From NCBI GenBank assembly GCA_046760705.1, contig JBHIER010000238.1, positions 1 to 5,795 on the forward strand: a DNA stretch of 5,795 bases. The letters run 5' to 3'. Both the position numbers and the translations under genes were made by a program. Under the pieces are notes generated by a model, which did no database searches, was not told where the DNA came from, and was given only the letters and a program-made list of their open reading frames with translations. Below, piece by piece: positions 1 to 5,294 of the stretch (position 1 is the first letter of the stretch; each line of letters starts with the position of its first letter). The DNA is from JBHIER01 sp046760705 [NCBI: bacterium] (GTDB lineage Bacteria > JBHIER01 > G020348925).

Positions 1-306
1 CGTCACCTCGGAGGTGTCCGGCGCATAGCCTTCCTTGGAGGCGGTGACGAGATACTCGCCGCCAGGTATATCGGATATGGCATAATCTCCCCGGCCATCA
101 GATAATACCCCTTTCAAACCGGGCAGAATTTGAATCTGAGCCGCGTCAATAGGCCTATCGTAGTAGGAGGTGACCCGGCCGAACAGACCCCCTGTGCCTT
201 TATAGTGGGAAGACTGGGGGTCGAAGGGATTACTTCGCTCCGCATCAGGAGCACAGCAGAAAAATAACGGGAATAGTAGCAAATGTATTGTCCAGATAAT
301 CCGCAT
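1..306 (-). CDS. Putative lipoprotein with carboxypeptidase-regulatory-like domain (3' end beyond window)
   Basis: The first 102 codons are present and the frame is open at the window edge, so the C-terminus is missing. The ATG at 306 follows a Shine-Dalgarno AAGGAG about 10 nt upstream. Residues 1-18 form a hydrophobic signal (MRIIWTIHLLLFPLFFCC) ending in two cysteines. This resembles a lipoprotein signal, but the residue before the cysteine is F or C rather than the usual G/A/S, so lipidation is likely rather than certain. A linker with NPFDP follows, then from about residue 44 a beta-rich stretch (LFGRVTSYYDRPIDAAQI, SDGRGDYAISDIPGGEYLV, ASKEGYAP). This matches the pattern of carboxypeptidase-regulatory-like/CnaB-type beta-sandwich domains: G-x-V, P-x-x-A, D-G-x-G-x-Y, I-P-x-G-x-Y. 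Such domains are common in surface proteins of FCB bacteria and usually act in adhesion or as structural modules. The gene lies 239 nt after the dockerin selenoprotein and probably has its own promoter. What the missing part carries cannot be told. Confidence 0.8.
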   Translation of the reverse strand, partial: MRIIWTIHLLLFPLFFCCAPDAERSNPFDPQSSHYKGTGGLFGRVTSYYDRPIDAAQIQILPGLKGVLSDGRGDYAISDIPGGEYLVTASKEGYAPDTSEVT

Positions 307-331
307 CAAATTTATACTCCTTAAGTCGATA

Positions 332-545: not shown

Positions 546-1271
546 TCAATGGCCAGCCCTTTTGGCCACCGCTGTTGGGCCTCCCAAAATTACGTTCACT
601 ATGCCGATGACATCAAGAACATTAATACTTCCATCGGAATCAAAATCAGCCGCACAGAATTGGGAAGAGTCAGGTTCAACCATACTGAGAATAAAATTGA
701 CTGTCAGAACAACGTCGAGCACATTGATCTGGCCATCGAAGTTGACATCACCCTTCAGACAGGGAGTCAAAAGGCTTACAATATTTGAGATTATCGCATC
801 CTCATCATAACCACCGGCACGATATTGAATCACACTGTTTGAGTCAATCACGAAGTAATAGTTGTGAGAGGCTCCATAAATAGAGGCCGTAGAACTGCCA
901 CTTAACAAAAGTGGGTAAGTGATACCGGCGGGTATCTGATAAACGGATCGAACTTGGCTGGCTGTACCATTAAAGATATCTATGCCCAAGACCTGAAAAT
1001 CTTGATCTTGATAGGCCCCCCAAATGTTTTGTTCAATAGACGGTGCCACCGCCTGACAAGGACCTCAGGAATAGCCAAAAAAGTAAAGAAGAATCACAAG
1101 GCCAGAATAATCCGACAGGGAAACAGTATCGCCGTCAAGATCGATAAGGGTAAAATTCGGGGCAGGATCGCCAACCCCGGGCTGAGCTGCGCCTTTACGA
1201 CTAAATCCAAACAACATCAGCAAAAGAGTAAGAGTAAGAAACAGGTTTCTTTTTTGCGGTAATTTGAACAT
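546..1271 (-). CDS. Exported TlpA/ResA-like thioredoxin-fold selenoprotein with C-terminal dockerin-type repeats (Sec at residue 69)
   Basis: This is a 241-residue protein if the in-frame UGA at 1065..1067 is read as selenocysteine. The ATG at 1271 follows a purine-rich GAGAGAGGGGG. Residues 1-30 are a signal peptide (basic start, LFLTLTLLLMLFGF core, cleavage near AAQ). Residues 31-168 are a redoxin domain: GDPAPNFTLIDLDG, then LLYFFGYS-U-G-P-C (U69, C72), VLGIDIF, and GITYPLL, whose P120 sits where the cis-proline belongs. Cysteine relatives have CGPC here, so U replaces the attacking cysteine. Residues 174-230 hold two dockerin-like calcium loops (GDVNFDGQINVLDV and ADFDSDGSINVLDV), each followed by a hydrophobic helix. 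The likely role is a thiol/selenol oxidoreductase outside the cytoplasm, tethered through the dockerin or folded by calcium; the partner is unknown. A bSECIS-like hairpin follows the UGA (1038..1054). Without recoding, the product would end at 68 residues just before the active site. A nonsense mutation is the alternative, but the position and downstream conservation argue against it. Confidence 0.88.
1038..1054 (-). promoter_or_regulatory. Bacterial SECIS-like hairpin after the UGA of the TlpA-like gene
   Basis: The mRNA AGGCGGU-GGC-ACCGUCU folds into a 7-bp stem (one G-U pair) with a GGC triloop at 1045..1047. The apical G is preceded by 17 nt counted from the end of the UGA. Bacterial SECIS models ask for a short stem-loop with G in the first two loop positions, roughly 16-37 nt after the UGA, and this meets all of those. 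SelB is the expected ligand. The hairpin lies inside the reading frame and encodes the residues just after the active site, as is normal in bacteria. Confidence 0.75.
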
Positions 1272-1390
1272 TTTTGTTCCCCCTCTCTCAATTTGCTGGG
1301 GACACCTTAGTGCTCTGGTTCGCAAATACGGTGACGTATTCTATTATTTGTCCCAAAATGCGTTCATAAAGAAAAGCCCGATCGTTCGCT

Positions 1391-1525: not shown

Positions 1526-2695
1526 TCACCTTCCTCTGCCCCGATGGCCGCTGTGTCCCCGATGCCCTCCACCAAAATGGCCTCGACCGATGGATCCTCG
1601 GCCGATGGATCCTCGGCTAAAATGCCGCCCACCCGGTCTGCTTATGTATCCGCGACTGAAACGTCTGCTGCCTGAGGAGCGCCCAAAATGAGGTCGATTA
1701 TAACTCTTGGAACCTGTATGGCGGCGGTATCCACGGCGGTATTGGGGCCGCTCATATTTACGCCCCCGAGATCGTTCGTGGCGGTTGTAGATGTGGTCTC
1801 TACGAGACACCCTACGACGCTGCACCCGGTAGCCTCTGTCACTCTTATCCCTCCCATAACGCTCTTTCCGAGCATAGCTTCTGTAATCTTCGCCCCCACC
1901 ACCTTTCCCAAGCCCTCTTCGCCGGTCATGCCTTCCGTATCTCCGCCCATCCCAGCGGTCCCAACCGTATCGGGGGTCGTAGCGATCGTACCACCAATCC
2001 CGGTAGTAATAGCCGGAGTAATACCAATCGCACTGGCCCAAATACCACCCCAGTCCATAGTCGTATGGTCCCCACCCCCAGTGAAATCCCAACCAGACAC
2101 CACCCCACCAGGCCGGATACCCGTAGTAGTAAGGCGCATAGAGCCAGGGCAGCCCGACGTCATAATAGACGATGTACCTTTCAACATATCTCTCATGGCC
2201 GTTGCTATCGTACTCAACCTCACCCGCCTCTTCCTTTTCAGCTACATCACCCCGGTCGGTGTCAATCCGAACCTCTCCGTCCCCTCTAAAGTATACCACC
2301 TCGGTGAGATTCAAAATCTCCTGTTCATCGTCATAGTACCCTCTCACGGTGATGCCTTGTGGATGCCGGCCCTCTTTCTCTAACCGTTCATTGCTCTCGA
2401 TGATCTTCTGGATATCCTGGTGTGTGTCTTCAAGAACCCCTCTGTTGTATCCGTCTTCGTAGCACAACAGCTTCTTTTCGTTCTGACCGAGCAACAGGTT
2501 CCACACACCGTAGTCGCCATCCTCTTTGTAAATGCTCACTATGGGCACGCCCTCCACGTCCACCAACCGGTCGGCATACTGCCCAATCTCTTCAATGCTG
2601 GTTCTGACCTGAGCCTCTGAAGAGCCCGAAAGTACGAACAAGAAAACAGCCACTGGCAGACTCAGACAGAATCCCTTTGTCCACATCGCTCTCAT
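1526..2695 (-). CDS. Exported Tyr/Trp-rich and Arg/Gly-rich low-complexity protein
   Basis: A protein of 389 residues of no family I can name. The ATG at 2695 is preceded by a strong AGGAGGTG with 7-nt spacing; a GTG 9 nt upstream overlaps that Shine-Dalgarno and is less likely. Residues 1-28 are a signal peptide (VAVFLFVLSGSSEA, then QV). Residues about 32-137 look like an ordered beta domain (LVDVEGVPIVSIY, GVWNLLLG, ITVRGYYDDEQEILNLTEVVYF), possibly OB-like, which is inference. Residues 138-170 are acidic. Residues 175-250 are crowded with Tyr, Trp, Gly and Asp (PAWWGGVWLGFHWGWGPYDY; DWYYSGYYYRDWWYDRYDP). Residues 250-389 are rich in Arg, Gly, His and Ser with RG/GR repeats, ending RGHSGHRGRGR. 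The acidic, aromatic and basic blocks suggest a sticky or self-associating envelope or matrix protein. The gene starts 87 nt after the TRASH-like selenoprotein gene ends. Long open frames on other strands across 1642-2383 arise from its codon bias. Confidence 0.8.
   Translation of the reverse strand: MRAMWTKGFCLSLPVAVFLFVLSGSSEAQVRTSIEEIGQYADRLVDVEGVPIVSIYKEDGDYGVWNLLLGQNEKKLLCYEDGYNRGVLEDTHQDIQKIIESNERLEKEGRHPQGITVRGYYDDEQEILNLTEVVYFRGDGEVRIDTDRGDVAEKEEAGEVEYDSNGHERYVERYIVYYDVGLPWLYAPYYYGYPAWWGGVWLGFHWGWGPYDYGLGWYLGQCDWYYSGYYYRDWWYDRYDPRYGWDRWDGRRYGRHDRRRGLGKGGGGEDYRSYARKERYGRDKSDRGYRVQRRRVSRRDHIYNRHERSRGRKYERPQYRRGYRRHTGSKSYNRPHFGRSSGSRRFSRGYISRPGGRHFSRGSIGRGSIGRGHFGGGHRGHSGHRGRGR
1587..1616 (-). 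repeat. 15-nt tandem duplication inside the Arg/Gly tail
   Basis: Two perfect copies of CCGATGGATCCTCGG (plus-strand reading) at 1587-1601 and 1602-1616. They encode the repeated pentapeptide in RGSIGRGSIGRG near residues 361-372. This is an in-frame slippage-type duplication in a low-complexity tail, probably tolerated and possibly length-variable between strains. Confidence 0.85.
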
Positions 2696-2727
2696 GACCG
2701 TCACCTCCTGTTAAGAAAGTTTTGAAT

Positions 2728-2782: not shown

Positions 2783-3238
2783 TCACTGAGACGCCACCTT
2801 GAATTTCTTCATATTCCCCACGTTCTCGAAATAGTACACCTTTCCATCAGGGAGTGCACCGATGACTGCGGTGGCCTTGTCAACGACATTCCCACTCACT
2901 GGATCAACCGCCTTCCGTATCTTCGGACCCGAAGATAGCCTTTTCAGGCAGTCATCGCATCAGCCGTAGTACGTCCGGCCATCAACTTCAACCGGAATCT
3001 GCTCTTTTTGAAAGAGCCGGTCGGTAGCCATGCCCATGCACACGTACTTTGCTTCCACCCTTGTCAATATGCTGGTTTGCGGTCCTTCGCCCCCGGATCT
3101 CCAGGGCTGGAATAGTGCCACAGAAGATCCAAACAGTAGCAATGCAAGTATCACGCCAAGGATCACATTGCGACGGCGTTTCTTCCTGCGATGCTTAATC
3201 TTCTTCATTTTGACTCTGCGATGCTTAATCTTCTTCAT
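2783..3238 (-). CDS. Membrane-anchored TRASH-like metal-binding selenoprotein (Sec at residue 93)
   Basis: A protein of 151 residues if the UGA at 2960..2962 is read as selenocysteine. The ATG at 3238 follows AAAGGAG with good spacing. Residues 1-24 are extremely basic and contain a duplicated decapeptide (MKKIKHRRVK, MKKIKHRRKK). Residues 25-43 are one membrane helix (VILGVILALLLFGSSVALF), placing the rest outside the cytoplasm by the positive-inside rule. The domain reads AKYVCMGMATDRLFQ (C67), IPVEVDGRTYYG-U-C-D-D-C (U93, C94, C97), KAVDPVSGNVVDKATAVIGA and GKVYYFENVGNMKKF. As I recall, cysteine relatives have YYGCCxxC followed by an AVDPVSGKPVDKATAVIG-like stretch, so U replaces the first Cys of the pair. 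C67...U93-x3-C97 mirrors the spaced-Cys plus CxxxC layout of TRASH metal-binding domains, although the C67-U93 gap (25 residues) is slightly longer than I recall as typical. The likely role is binding or sensing a soft metal such as Cu or Hg, or a redox switch. A strong bSECIS-like hairpin lies at 2918..2937. Stopping at the UGA would delete the metal site. Confidence 0.85.
2918..2937 (-). promoter_or_regulatory. Bacterial SECIS-like hairpin after the UGA of the TRASH-like gene
   Basis: The mRNA UAUCUUCG-GGUC-CGAAGAUA is a perfect 8-bp stem with a GGUC tetraloop (2926..2929). Exactly 30 nt separate the end of the UGA from the first loop G. The loop begins GG, and GGU-type apical loops are what SelB recognises in the classical formate dehydrogenase elements. 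It sits entirely inside the coding frame. It is the strongest perfect hairpin in this gene and is exactly where a SECIS is required. Confidence 0.85.
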
Positions 3239-3245
3239 TTTGACT
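3186..3245 (-). repeat. 30-nt perfect tandem repeat duplicating the start region of the TRASH-like gene
   Basis: Two identical 30-nt copies at 3186-3215 and 3216-3245. Each copy carries an in-frame ATG (3208 and 3238), and together they encode the doubled basic N-terminus. Only the upstream ATG has the strong AAAGGAG; the inner ATG is preceded by AGAGTC. The duplication adds ten mostly basic residues on the cytoplasmic side and looks recent because the copies are identical. Confidence 0.95.
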
Positions 3246-3282
3246 TCTCCTTTCTAATTTTACAAGCGCCGGGCATAAAGCC

Positions 3283-3320
3283 CTACACTACACATCTATA
3301 TAAAATAAAATGTAGTGTAG
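3283..3320 (-). promoter_or_regulatory. 10-bp perfect inverted repeat upstream of the TRASH-like selenoprotein gene
   Basis: CTACACTACA (3283-3292) and TGTAGTGTAG (3311-3320) are perfect inverted arms around an 18-nt AT-rich centre. Each arm is itself a pentamer repeated twice (CTACA CTACA / TGTAG TGTAG). The dyad ends 44 nt before the ATG at 3238 and 51 nt after the permease stop codon. It could be an operator for a dimeric regulator (metal-responsive regulators are plausible given the product), an RNA hairpin in the leader, or a weak terminator for the permease transcript. It lacks a GC-rich stem and a following U-run, so an operator or leader structure is more likely. A smaller GGGC-TTTAT-GCCC hairpin (3271-3283) directly follows on the transcribed strand. 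Confidence 0.55.
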
Positions 3321-3371
3321 CCCCTTGTGGGCGTATTTCTATAATTAATGTGTCTGTTCCTCCCCCTTTCT

Positions 3372-4511
3372 TTATTCATTCAGAACCTCGGCCGGATCCA
3401 TTTTGACCGCCTTTCTGGCCGGCAACAGGCTTGACAGAACGCATACCAAGATGGCTGTGATTAACGACCACACCAGAAAAAGGGGCACCAGCTTAATTTC
3501 AGCCTTCACAATCCGAGGACCAACAAGTAGAGCCAGTCCTGCTCCCACCAGGTATCCCAGAAGACCTCCAATCACTCCGAGGGAGACGGCCTTCTGAAAC
3601 AAGAGATGAAGTACCATCCCTGGGGTGGCCCCAATAGCCACCAATGTGCCAATCTCTCTTCTACGTTCGCGCACATTTATCTCCATGTAATTAGCAATGC
3701 TCAAGACACCAATGAGCATAATAATTACGAATAAGATTAAGGAATACCGCTTTAAAGTCTCCGTAGACCCCTTTCGAATATCGACGATCTGTTTCACGGT
3801 CACCGGTCTTGTACCGGGCAAAAGCGATTCAATTTTGCGAGAAAGATCTTCCACCATTTCTTCGTTTGACATAAGCTTAATTTCGTTAATTTTCCCTTCA
3901 ACTCCAAGGATGCCTTGAACCGTCGGCAAGGGGGCAAAAACCTTTATGTCGTCGAGGGTGCCTGATTTAGGAAGAATCTTTGTAATAGTGAGAGGAATCC
4001 CCTTTACCATCAGTGTCCCTTCCTCAACCAAGTCTAATTGATCGGCCAATTCACCCCCGATCAAGGCGTGGTTGCCACTGAGCTCCCTTATGTGAGGGGC
4101 CAGAGCCCCGAGGGCTTCGGAGAAGGAGAAATTGAGTTTCAAATTCTTATCGGGTAAAACACCCGTAAGTATGTACCGTTCGCCCTGCAAGGTGATCTCC
4201 GAGGAGAGGACGGGGGCAACATTCTCCCCGTCAAACAGACCTCGCTCGACTAAGATGGCAGCATAATGCTGGGGCATCACAGCCGTGCCGAATCTCCCCT
4301 GATAATAGTCGGTCAACGACATCTGTCGGGGTAAAACAAACACGCTGCCCCCTAAATATCGCAGTTGCTCGGCTAAAGATTCCTTTGAGGAGACACTTAT
4401 GGATTGAACGGCCACAATAATGGTTATGCCTAAAAAGATGGCCATCAGGCTGGCAAATGACCTCACCTTCCTCTGGGTGAGCTCCTTGAGCATAATTGCA
4501 TTGAGATTCAT
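3372..4511 (-). CDS. MacB/FtsX-type ABC transporter permease
   Basis: A 379-residue inner-membrane protein with type VII ABC permease architecture: a short cytoplasmic start, TM1 (about 20-40), a long extracytoplasmic domain (about 41-255), then TM2 (256-276), TM3 (about 300-332) and TM4 (341-363). Hallmarks are the coupling-helix region RERRREIGTLVAIGATPG (281-298) and the C-terminal PARKAVKMDPAEVL (364-377). Family members use a separate cytoplasmic ATPase to drive mechanical work in the periplasm: export of peptides or antibiotics, lipoprotein release, or activation of cell-wall hydrolases. Which of these applies cannot be told. The ATG at 4511 lies 9 nt after the TGA of the thioredoxin-fold gene, with GAGGACGAG as a modest Shine-Dalgarno, so the two are co-translated. 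The length is normal for the family and I see no break. No ATPase gene is in the window. Confidence 0.93.
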   Translation of the reverse strand: MNLNAIMLKELTQRKVRSFASLMAIFLGITIIVAVQSISVSSKESLAEQLRYLGGSVFVLPRQMSLTDYYQGRFGTAVMPQHYAAILVERGLFDGENVAPVLSSEITLQGERYILTGVLPDKNLKLNFSFSEALGALAPHIRELSGNHALIGGELADQLDLVEEGTLMVKGIPLTITKILPKSGTLDDIKVFAPLPTVQGILGVEGKINEIKLMSNEEMVEDLSRKIESLLPGTRPVTVKQIVDIRKGSTETLKRYSLILFVIIMLIGVLSIANYMEINVRERRREIGTLVAIGATPGMVLHLLFQKAVSLGVIGGLLGYLVGAGLALLVGPRIVKAEIKLVPLFLVWSLITAILVCVLSSLLPARKAVKMDPAEVLNE

Positions 4512-4520
4512 CTCTCGTCC

Positions 4521-5294
4521 TCAGTCATCGCAGGTGGTTCCGCCCTCTCCGGTGCCCGTACCGCCACAACCACTCCGGGAAATCAGAACTTTTTGAAAAG
4601 AAGCCAACAGGTCTTTCACCGTGACTTCCCCCACAAATCTGTCTACAATCTGTCCATTTTTTGATACGACCACTGTTGTGGCTTCTTCTACACCGGGATT
4701 TGCCTTCAACTGCTTTAACAACTTTGCCTCGGATCTATCCTCGGGGTCGATAACAATCACTTTCACCGATTTGCTTAAGACTTTAGCCAATTTGTTTACA
4801 ACTTCAAGGTTCTTCTTCCCGTGAGGCGTACGCTCGTTCTGAACGCTGAAAAAGATGACCTTGTTTTCTTGCAACGCTTTCAAAGCCTCAGCCATTTTGG
4901 AAGAAGCAAATCCTCCTTCCAACTCATTCAAACTCACAACACCCTGGAACCCTCCGGTCACCGTCCCCTCCGGGCTGAGGGTCAAAGTCAGGGGTGCTTT
5001 GTAGACGCTGTATTGTCTCAACAAATCCCGGTGTCGGGGATCATTGATCTCTATGCGGACAAACTCCGCCCTGTCCTTCCACTTCTTCTCGGCCTGATCA
5101 AATATTTTTGACATCTCCTCGCTGTCGGTCACACCCTGTTCATAAAAGAGGATAAAAACGTGCTTGCCGTTTTCCAAAGCTTTTTCTATGGCTCTCTCCT
5201 CGGAGTCGTGCTCTGCCTTCAACGCAGGAGCCCAAATGAGACTGACAAAAAGCAAGGAGAAGATTAAGACCAAAAGGAGAGTGTTTCTGTTCAT
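4521..5294 (-). CDS. Exported double thioredoxin-fold protein lacking CxxC, with Cys-containing tail
   Basis: A protein of 257 residues. The ATG at 5294 follows AGAGGGGG with 8-nt spacing. Residues 1-27 are a signal peptide (LLLVLIFSLLFVSLI core, cleavage near LKA-E). Residues 33-140 look like a thioredoxin fold (HVFILFYEQGVTDSEEMSKIFD, FVRIEIND, YKAPLTLTLSPEG). The CxxC position reads GVTD, while P101 sits where the cis-proline belongs. Residues 143-237 are a second such domain (KVIFFSVQNE, VKVIVIDPED, ATTVVVSKNGQIVDRFVGE), also without active cysteines. The tail, SGCGGTGTGEGGTTCDD, carries the protein's only two cysteines (C243, C255) in a Gly/Thr-rich flexible stretch. It is probably a non-catalytic binding or chaperone-like partner; the tail could bind metal, form a disulfide or anchor the protein. 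It is coupled to the downstream permease (9-nt gap), suggesting a functional pair. Its own terminator is UGA, used as a genuine stop. Confidence 0.85.
   Translation of the reverse strand: MNRNTLLLVLIFSLLFVSLIWAPALKAEHDSEERAIEKALENGKHVFILFYEQGVTDSEEMSKIFDQAEKKWKDRAEFVRIEINDPRHRDLLRQYSVYKAPLTLTLSPEGTVTGGFQGVVSLNELEGGFASSKMAEALKALQENKVIFFSVQNERTPHGKKNLEVVNKLAKVLSKSVKVIVIDPEDRSEAKLLKQLKANPGVEEATTVVVSKNGQIVDRFVGEVTVKDLLASFQKVLISRSGCGGTGTGEGGTTCDD

What the first reader, a model, noticed from the sequence alone, without database searches (positions are those of the whole stretch)
2783..3238. Selenocysteine in a TRASH-like metal-binding domain: UGA at the first Cys of the C-C-x-x-C site
Seen: TYYG-UGA-TGC-GAT-GAC-TGC, giving U-C-D-D-C, followed in frame by KAVDPVSGNVVDKATAVIGA and ending 58 codons after the UGA. 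Inference: cysteine relatives carry YYGCCxxC, so Sec would be a metal ligand or a redox switch on the outside of the membrane. I know of no described Sec form of this domain, so this may be a new selenoprotein family. A selenolate would favour soft metals such as Hg, Cu or Ag, or give a lower pKa for sensing.
Basis: partly seen in the sequence, partly recalled or inferred. Interest (0 to 1): 0.95.

Follow-up and report, generated by a model that had tools for sequence, protein, structure and literature searches.

The report
Probable selenocysteine in a TRASH-like protein
A small, probably exported metal-binding protein of an unnamed bacterium has, at one of the cysteines that should hold the metal, the codon UGA, which here most likely means selenocysteine rather than stop; we found no description of this form of the protein.

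Summary
On the minus strand an ORF (3238..2963) runs to an in-frame TGA (2962..2960), and the frame continues (2959..2786) to its own stop. The two pieces, searched apart, match the two halves of one protein family with exactly the TGA codon between them. In 75 of 75 other loci that carry the C-C-x-x-C motif this codon is TGC or TGT. The Cys forms are TRASH/YHS-like, though mostly below Pfam's curated cut-offs, and several sit beside copper genes. The window keeps every strongly conserved column on both sides, so the gene does not look decayed.

Two things favour selenocysteine over stop. A redoxin-dockerin ORF in the same window has an in-frame TGA at its catalytic Cys, and a relative in a SelA-encoding genome has TGA at the same column. 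Behind both window TGAs lies a hairpin that fits the published bacterial SECIS model (reached by 2.2% and 1.6% of synonymous recodings).

Limits: it is the only TGA form found, the host genome is not held, its selenocysteine machinery was not seen, and the hairpin is not decisive alone. The gene was not read through. I rate it a likely new selenoprotein variant; that Sec binds the metal is inference.

The parts
2963..3238 (-). N piece of the TRASH-like ORF (92 aa): basic start, membrane/signal-like segment, then RVEAKYVCMGM...QIPVEVDGRTYYG up to the TGA
   Evidence: in 19 of 19 loci tblastn ends at residue 92, one codon before the C piece
2960..2962 (-). in-frame TGA, the proposed Sec codon, at the first Cys of C-C-x-x-C
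   Evidence: Cys codon in 75 of 75 motif-bearing relatives
2786..2959 (-). C piece of the TRASH-like ORF (58 aa), CDDCLKRL...YYFENVGNMKKFKVASQ; from about its residue 18 on a cysteine-free YHS-like stretch
   Evidence: YHS at E 0.097
2783..2785 (-). terminal stop, also TGA
2918..2937 (-). SECIS-model hairpin: 8 pairs, loop GGUC, 30 nt after the TGA, -8.0 kcal/mol
3038..3040 (-). codon of Cys67, the invariant first metal-site Cys (YVCM)
2957..2959 (-). codon of the second Cys of C-C-x-x-C, next to the TGA
2948..2950 (-). codon of the last Cys of C-C-x-x-C
3247..3250 (-). Shine-Dalgarno-like GGAG before the first ATG
   Evidence: read
1068..1325 (-). N piece of a second ORF of the same kind: AhpC-TSA/redoxin, ends ...LLYFFGYS
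1065..1067 (-). in-frame TGA at the first catalytic Cys place of the redoxin ([TGA]-G-P-C)
   Evidence: TGA at the same column in L067, Cys in L072
549..1064 (-). C piece of the redoxin ORF with a type I dockerin
1038..1054 (-). SECIS-model hairpin behind the redoxin TGA: 7 pairs, loop GGC, 17 nt after the TGA, -7.6 kcal/mol

Best explanation
This is an intact selenoprotein gene. It codes for a small, probably exported or membrane-anchored protein with a TRASH-like metal site, C-x25-[UGA]-C-x2-C. The UGA is recoded as selenocysteine through the hairpin at 2937..2918 by the host's SelB and tRNA-Sec. Sec then stands where all relatives have a metal-site Cys, next to a second Cys. The protein most likely binds a soft metal, Cu(I) first of all, outside the cytoplasm and hands it on or keeps it harmless; the selenolate would raise affinity or tie metal binding to redox state. 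Shown: the in-frame TGA, its place at a Cys invariant in the relatives, the conservation on both sides, a SECIS-model hairpin, the second TGA of the same kind in the window, and copper genes beside several Cys relatives. Inferred: recoding in the host, export, the metal, and the advantage of Se.
For: 75 of 75 motif-bearing relatives have Cys there. Both pieces match the family with one codon between them in 19 of 19 loci. The window keeps 16 of 16 columns of at least 90% conservation in the C piece and 9 of 9 in the N piece, against 41 relatives. The second TGA lies at the catalytic Cys place of a redoxin; its relative L067 has TGA at the same column with a matching piece behind it (33%, E 2.5e-10), and L072 has Cys. 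The genomes of L067, L072, L011 and L021 have SelA over cut-off (4 of 4). Hairpins that fit the published bSECIS model (PMC13188914 section 5) lie behind both TGAs. Of 220 TGA trinucleotides in the window 5 have such a hairpin, these two among them. Synonymous null: 43 and 32 of 2000. TRASH/YHS-like by Pfam. Copper genes near several Cys relatives.
Against: No TGA form was found outside the window. Two of 20 Cys relatives also pass the hairpin threshold, so the hairpin alone is weak. In a 49-nt fold a competing structure wins, with a GAAA loop only 14 nt after the TGA. The TGA redoxin relative L067 has no hairpin that fits the model. The whole stretch behind the redoxin TGA folds no better than shuffles. 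The host genome is not held, so SelA/B/C/D were not seen in it. No metal gene was recognised in the window, and 8 of 15 relatives' loci looked at by eye show none either. PF08394 scores of all 21 relatives seen in full lie below the curated cut-off.
Confidence: 0.85

Rival explanations
1. A recent nonsense mutation: the gene has just been broken and the C piece has not had time to drift.
For: The window is the only TGA form among 76 motif-bearing genes, itself counted. TGA is one step from TGC/TGT.
Against: It would have to take one of about 4 Cys routes of about 53, be followed by a SECIS-model hairpin (43 of 2000), and a like event would have to lie in the redoxin ORF of the same 5.8 kb. No strongly conserved column is lost.
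Confidence: 0.06
2. A base error in the read or assembly turned TGC/TGT into TGA.
For: One contig of unknown depth. PMC2398784 (passages) warns of this for single sequences.
Against: The same coincidences as above, and the redoxin TGA has a TGA relative in another genome.
Confidence: 0.05
3. The host uses another genetic code in which TGA is always an amino acid.
For: Two in-frame TGAs in a short contig.
Against: Four of the six window ORFs that end inside it end at TGA, TGG is used (14 in one ORF) and TGC/TGT are used. The C piece is 58 residues long and 15 of 19 relatives end after 54-61 residues from the same point, so its terminal TGA looks like a real stop.
Confidence: 0.01
4. Sec is there but serves a thiol-redox task (the U-C pair or C-x-x-C as a dithiol/selenenylsulfide), not metal binding.
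For: Neighbours in the window are a thioredoxin-like protein and a redoxin. Most characterised selenoproteins have a redox motif (PMC13188914, section 7 parts 1-2).
Against: The family is TRASH/YHS-like, the TGA-x3-Cys spacing equals that of the ligands C204 and C208 of a YHS protein (PMC4626032 passages), and several relatives sit beside copper genes.
Confidence: 0.25

Closest known systems
Cys-form TRASH/YHS-like proteins (e.g. L001, L011, L014, L018, L021)
   Same: Similar length, same C...C-C-x2-C site and cysteine-free second half; 54-67% identity over the C piece in these five loci. L011 and L021 also share the x25 spacing and CMGM; the other 39 of 41 aligned have x23
   Different: Cys codon instead of TGA in all; several lie beside CopA-type multicopper oxidase, CopB, CusF, RND or P-type ATPase genes, which the window does not show
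YHS selenoprotein NF041384 (PMC13188914 Table 1, motif GxU)
   Same: A YHS-type protein listed as a selenoprotein
   Different: Different family and motif: in G012 and G009 it lies at other loci than our family, and it was not among the 25 of 27 NCBIfam families shown for our relatives
CopZ-family (2Fe-2S) selenoprotein form 1, motif GxUC; SaoC and MbdU, motif CU (PMC13188914 Table 1)
   Same: Sec next to Cys in proteins that the table names for metals (CopZ family, metal-binding MbdU) or for a Cys-Cys end (SaoC)
   Different: Known here from the review table only; not compared by sequence
Redoxin / AhpC-TSA UxxC selenoproteins (PMC13188914 Table 1)
   Same: The second TGA of the window is of this known kind; L067 carries it too
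   Different: The window copy is fused to a type I dockerin
Ribosomal eL24 and M. phlei adenylyl cyclase YHS domain (PMC4626032 passages)
   Same: Cys-x3-Cys metal site; eL24 binds Cd through four Cys per that paper; 8 of 41 relatives match the NCBIfam model of L24e weakly (best 0.0022)
   Different: Not exported (recalled), no Sec; fold matches of the Cys form to ribosomal chains that I recall to be eL24 are weak

Membership tests
TRASH/YHS domain (Pfam PF08394, PF04945) | Sequence match to the domain models over the curated cut-off | tested here: inconclusive
   Intact Cys relatives: 41 of 41 match PF08394 at E<=0.1, best 1.3e-6, but 0 of the 21 seen in full reach 27 bits; YHS over its cut-off in 4 of 21, through the second half. 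The window's cut pieces: YHS E 0.097 only.
TRASH/YHS domain (Pfam PF08394, PF04945) | Four metal-ligand positions with a C-x3-C pair | tested here: inconclusive
   Met by the 41 aligned Cys relatives, in which four Cys are invariant. The window has three of the four as Cys; the TGA is at the other.
TRASH/YHS domain (Pfam PF08394, PF04945) | Treble-clef fold | tested here: inconclusive
   Model of the Cys relative L021, pLDDT 84; best PDB rows E 0.45 and Z 3.2.
TRASH/YHS domain (Pfam PF08394, PF04945) | Binds a transition metal | not testable with these tools
   -
Bacterial selenoprotein | In-frame TGA aligned to a Cys of homologues | tested here: met
Bacterial selenoprotein | bSECIS hairpin (loop 3-9 nt with G in first two, stem 4-16, 16-37 nt from TGA, <=-7.5 kcal/mol; PMC13188914) | tested here: met
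   (-8.0, 30 nt, 8 pairs, GGUC); which structure wins depends on the length folded
Bacterial selenoprotein | TGA form in other organisms | tested here: inconclusive
   None among 75 motif-bearing relatives; only some phyla could be reached
Bacterial selenoprotein | Host encodes SelA, SelB, SelC, SelD | not testable with these tools
   No genome held for the window. SelA in 4 of 4 genomes searched of the phylum of L011
YHS selenoprotein NF041384 | Match to that model over cut-off | tested here: not met
   Window pieces, cut at the stop, do not match at E<=1. Of six genomes, the model hits G012 and G009 at other loci than our family and not G011, G091, G008 or G053

The most novel reading that the evidence does not exclude
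A selenolate is a direct metal ligand in a TRASH-like domain: an exported copper-type protein in which Sec, next to a Cys, binds Cu(I) (or Hg/Ag) and in which a selenenylsulfide between the two switches the metal on or off. It would be a selenoprotein family not in the 2026 table of 119 families and subfamilies (PMC13188914).
Probability: 0.42. Interest if true: 0.78.

Novelty: new variant of a known kind. Interest (0 to 1): 0.62.

Why it matters
Sec is known mainly as a redox residue. A Sec in place of a metal-site Cys in a copper-type TRASH-like domain would show selenium used for metal binding, would link selenium supply to metal handling, and would be missed by an annotation that ends the gene at the TGA. 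It also shows that a short unnamed contig can be recognised as coming from a probable Sec user through two separate genes.

Tried and rejected
Alternative code: rejected because TGA ends four of the six ORFs that end in the window and TGG/TGC/TGT are used. Known YHS selenoprotein NF041384: different family. Rfam: no family at gathering score in the window and only chance-level hits around the TGA; no tRNA in the window. PDB by sequence: only chance-level matches for the C piece and none for the profile of intact Cys relatives. PDB by fold: no match under E 0.001; the top rows are ribosomal chains that I recall to be eL24 and, toluene monooxygenase, which PMC4626032 names as holding a YHS domain; all weak. 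Viral contigs: nine stretches match a DNA pattern around the TGA and none encodes a relative of the C piece; the nine were also in the tblastn, best E 0.11. Host phylum: a permease search in the phylum of L011 gave nothing at E<=1e-60, which says little. Promoter and terminator patterns: none.

Literature: 'selenocysteine'+'TRASH'+'selenoprotein'+'metagenom' gave 2 papers, unrelated by the listing; 'selenoprotein'+'TRASH domain' gave 0; 'selenoprotein'+'YHS' gave 5, three of them selenoproteome papers looked at here. Held library only. What I saw of each paper: PMC13188914 sections 5 and 7 (parts 1-2 of 3) and passages; PMC9312934, PMC2398784, PMC7830388, PMC4626032, PMC1794560 and PMC9012183 passages only.

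Rows dropped before counts: L022, L023, L052, L054 and L097, L098, L107, L115, L117, L121, L122 are second copies of loci counted before; L134 repeats L133; L019/L027 is cut off before the position; L045, L046, L049, L050 lack the motif and are reported apart; L055-L063 are pattern hits without a relative. Of 44 distinct Cys loci then in hand, 41 went into alignment A1; L030, L036 and L048 were left out because no ATG was found in range. In one search I read loci of minus-strand matches in the wrong orientation; one search replaces it.

Full report
OBSERVATION. The window is one 5.8-kb contig for which no genome is held. The ORFs that I scanned all lie on the minus strand; plus-strand ORFs (up to 231 aa) were not scanned. 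In order: a Y_Y_Y-like fragment, a thioredoxin-like protein (5294..4521), an FtsX/MacB-type permease (4511..3372), the TRASH-like ORF (3238..2783), a 392-aa Trp/Tyr/Gly/Arg-rich ORF without a Pfam match (2704..1526), a redoxin-dockerin ORF (1325..546) and a CarboxypepD_reg fragment (309..1). The TRASH-like ORF starts at ATG 3238 behind a GGAG, runs to TGA at 2962..2960, and the frame stays open to a second TGA at 2785..2783. I did not read it through; the two pieces were searched apart.

RELATIVES. The C piece found 20 loci in genome contigs. In the 19 where both can be seen, tblastn of the N piece ends at its last residue and that of the C piece starts at its first, with one codon between. 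That codon is TGC or TGT in 19 of 19. Searches of whole genomes with the C piece (245, 395, 8, 247, 148 and 57 genomes, overlapping) gave, after duplicates, 25 and 29 further loci with the motif. The plasmid collection gave 3 records, two distinct genes. All have Cys: 75 of 75. Four paralogues lack the motif. The TGA form is alone among 76.

FAMILY. The Cys forms are TRASH/YHS-like: 41 of 41 match PF08394 at E<=0.1 and 33 of 41 PF04945. Scores are modest. Of 21 relatives seen in full, none reaches the PF08394 cut-off (best 22.4 of 27 bits), and 4 (L002, L014, L016, L020) pass that of YHS through the second half. Invariant in the 41 aligned are four Cys, a Tyr, an Asp-Pro, a Lys, a Tyr-Phe and a Met besides the start. 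In the numbering of L021 the Cys are C46, C72, C73, C76; the TGA stands at C72. The distance from the first Cys is x23 in 39 of 41 and x25 in L011, L021 and the window. PMC4626032 (passages) gives the likely ligands of a YHS domain as D178, C181, C204, C208 and says that eL24, a TRASH protein, binds Cd through four Cys. C72-x3-C76 has the spacing of C204-x3-C208, so the TGA falls on a likely ligand (inference). An AlphaFold model of the Cys relative L021 has a well-defined domain from about residue 40 to 125. Its best PDB rows are ribosomal chains (eL24, as I recall) and toluene monooxygenase, with weak scores; 8 of 41 relatives also touch the NCBIfam L24e model (best 0.0022). The second half looks like a YHS repeat without cysteines (C piece to YHS at E 0.097; inference).

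FUNCTION OF THE RELATIVES. By Pfam on ten picked proteins: multicopper oxidases (L002, L014, L018), CopB (L014), a plastocyanin/CusF protein and a MerR regulator (L018), an RND pump (L013), P-type ATPases with heavy-metal binding domain (L014, L020) and an HMBD protein (L011). These were picked because they looked like metal genes, so they are examples, not a rate. By eye 7 of 15 loci show such genes (L002, L013, L014, L015, L016, L018, L020) and 8 do not (L001, L004, L006, L007, L008, L010, L012, L017). The Ornithobacterium plasmid gene is followed by an annotated multicopper oxidase domain protein. The window shows none.

IS THE TGA A CODON? Four lines. (1) Conservation: the window keeps 16 of 16 columns with at least 90% conservation in the C piece and 9 of 9 in the N piece; relatives left out one at a time keep a median of all, at worst 75% and 80%. 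(2) A second TGA at a Cys place: the redoxin ORF ends its N piece ...LLYFFGYS, then TGA 1067..1065, then GPCQAVAP.... In the phylum of L011 177 of 244 genomes match this N piece; I read the 30 loci fetched plus L004-L006. Of these 33, L067 has TGA at the very same column (LLFFFGDG [TGA] SSCRAVAPEIE), L072 has Cys there, 13 others have TGA four codons later, behind xTPG in 10 of them, which fits the known peroxiredoxin selenoprotein (TxxU, PMC13188914 Table 1), one has a TAA inside the match, and the rest have no stop nearby. The piece after the TGA of L067 matches the window's (33%, E 2.5e-10). SelA is over cut-off in the genomes of L067, L072, L011 and L021; SelB in 6 of the 20 genomes of the first scan. 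(3) Hairpins: the model in PMC13188914 (section 5) asks for a 3-9 nt loop with G in the first two places, a stem of 4-16 pairs, 16-37 nt from the TGA and at most -7.5 kcal/mol. Behind TGA 2960: 8 pairs, loop GGUC, 30 nt, -8.0. Behind TGA 1065: 7 pairs, loop GGC, 17 nt, -7.6. Shuffles reach -7.5 in 77 and 52 of 2000, synonymous recodings in 43 and 32 of 2000. Of 220 TGA trinucleotides of the window, in any frame with 60 nt behind them, 5 have such a hairpin: these two, one that shares the hairpin of the first, one other on the minus strand and one on the plus strand. (4) Stops by chance at Cys codons are costly: 3 of 52 and 3 of 68 single-base routes to a stop start from Cys in the two ORFs as they stand, about 4 of 53 and 4 of 69 with the lost Cys counted in.

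AGAINST. No second TGA form of the TRASH-like family. Two of 20 Cys relatives also have a hairpin at or under -7.5 (L012, L017). The 49-nt stretch from the TGA folds best into a different structure whose GAAA loop is 14 nt from the TGA; the GGUC hairpin appears in the 79-nt fold. The stretches behind the redoxin TGA fold no better than their shuffles as a whole. L067 has no fitting hairpin. The host's Sec machinery is unseen. The reading is strong but not proven.

AGE AND STATE. If it is a broken gene, it broke so recently that no strongly conserved residue has changed. The nearest relatives differ at about 40% of C-piece residues (0.62 and 0.59 identity), so the lineage is long separated, while the frame is clean apart from the TGA. 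CMGM behind the first Cys is shared with only L011 and L021 of the 41 aligned; both lie in one phylum (L011's record title: Candidatus Marinimicrobia; G091 found in the phylum of G011). The host may belong there or near it; a permease search did not settle this.

VERDICT. Probable new selenoprotein variant: Sec at a metal-site Cys of a TRASH-like protein, 0.85 that the TGA is Sec. That Sec binds the metal is inference, about 0.42.

Noticed in passing
window 1065-1067 (-), ORF 546-1325: Second in-frame TGA of the window, at the first catalytic Cys place of a redoxin fused to a type I dockerin; a relative with TGA at the same column is L067, with Cys L072.
   Followed up: yes
window 3186-3245: Perfect tandem duplication of 30 nt at the start of the TRASH-like ORF, so that MKKIKHRR stands twice, the second time with its own ATG.
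   Followed up: no
window 3274-3329: Inverted repeat with CTACACTACA/TGTAGTGTAG inside 19-nt arms 18 nt apart, upstream of the TRASH-like gene; operator-like by eye, no promoter or terminator pattern found by the scan.
   Followed up: no
window 1526-2704 (-): 392-aa ORF rich in Trp, Tyr, Gly and Arg with a signal-like start and no Pfam or NCBIfam match at E<=1.
   Followed up: no
window 4521-5294 (-): Thioredoxin-like protein (best Pfam E 1.1e-5) whose TGA stop lies in frame three codons before the ATG of the permease.
   Followed up: no
L066, L070, L074, L075, L079, L081, L086-L088, L090-L093: 13 of the 33 loci read have a peroxiredoxin-like ORF with TGA behind xTPG or the like, which fits the known TxxU selenoprotein; L073 has a TAA and is not one of them.
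   Followed up: partly
L095 (G012): The genome of L012 carries the known YHS selenoprotein family NF041384 with one TGA inside the match, while its TRASH-like gene has Cys.
   Followed up: no
L045, L046, L049, L050: Paralogues that keep the second half but lack the C-C-x-x-C motif.
   Followed up: no
L133, L134, L094 (plasmids): The Cys form also rides on plasmids of Ornithobacterium and Pontibacter, beside DUF3347 proteins, and beside an annotated multicopper oxidase protein or RND adaptors.
   Followed up: no
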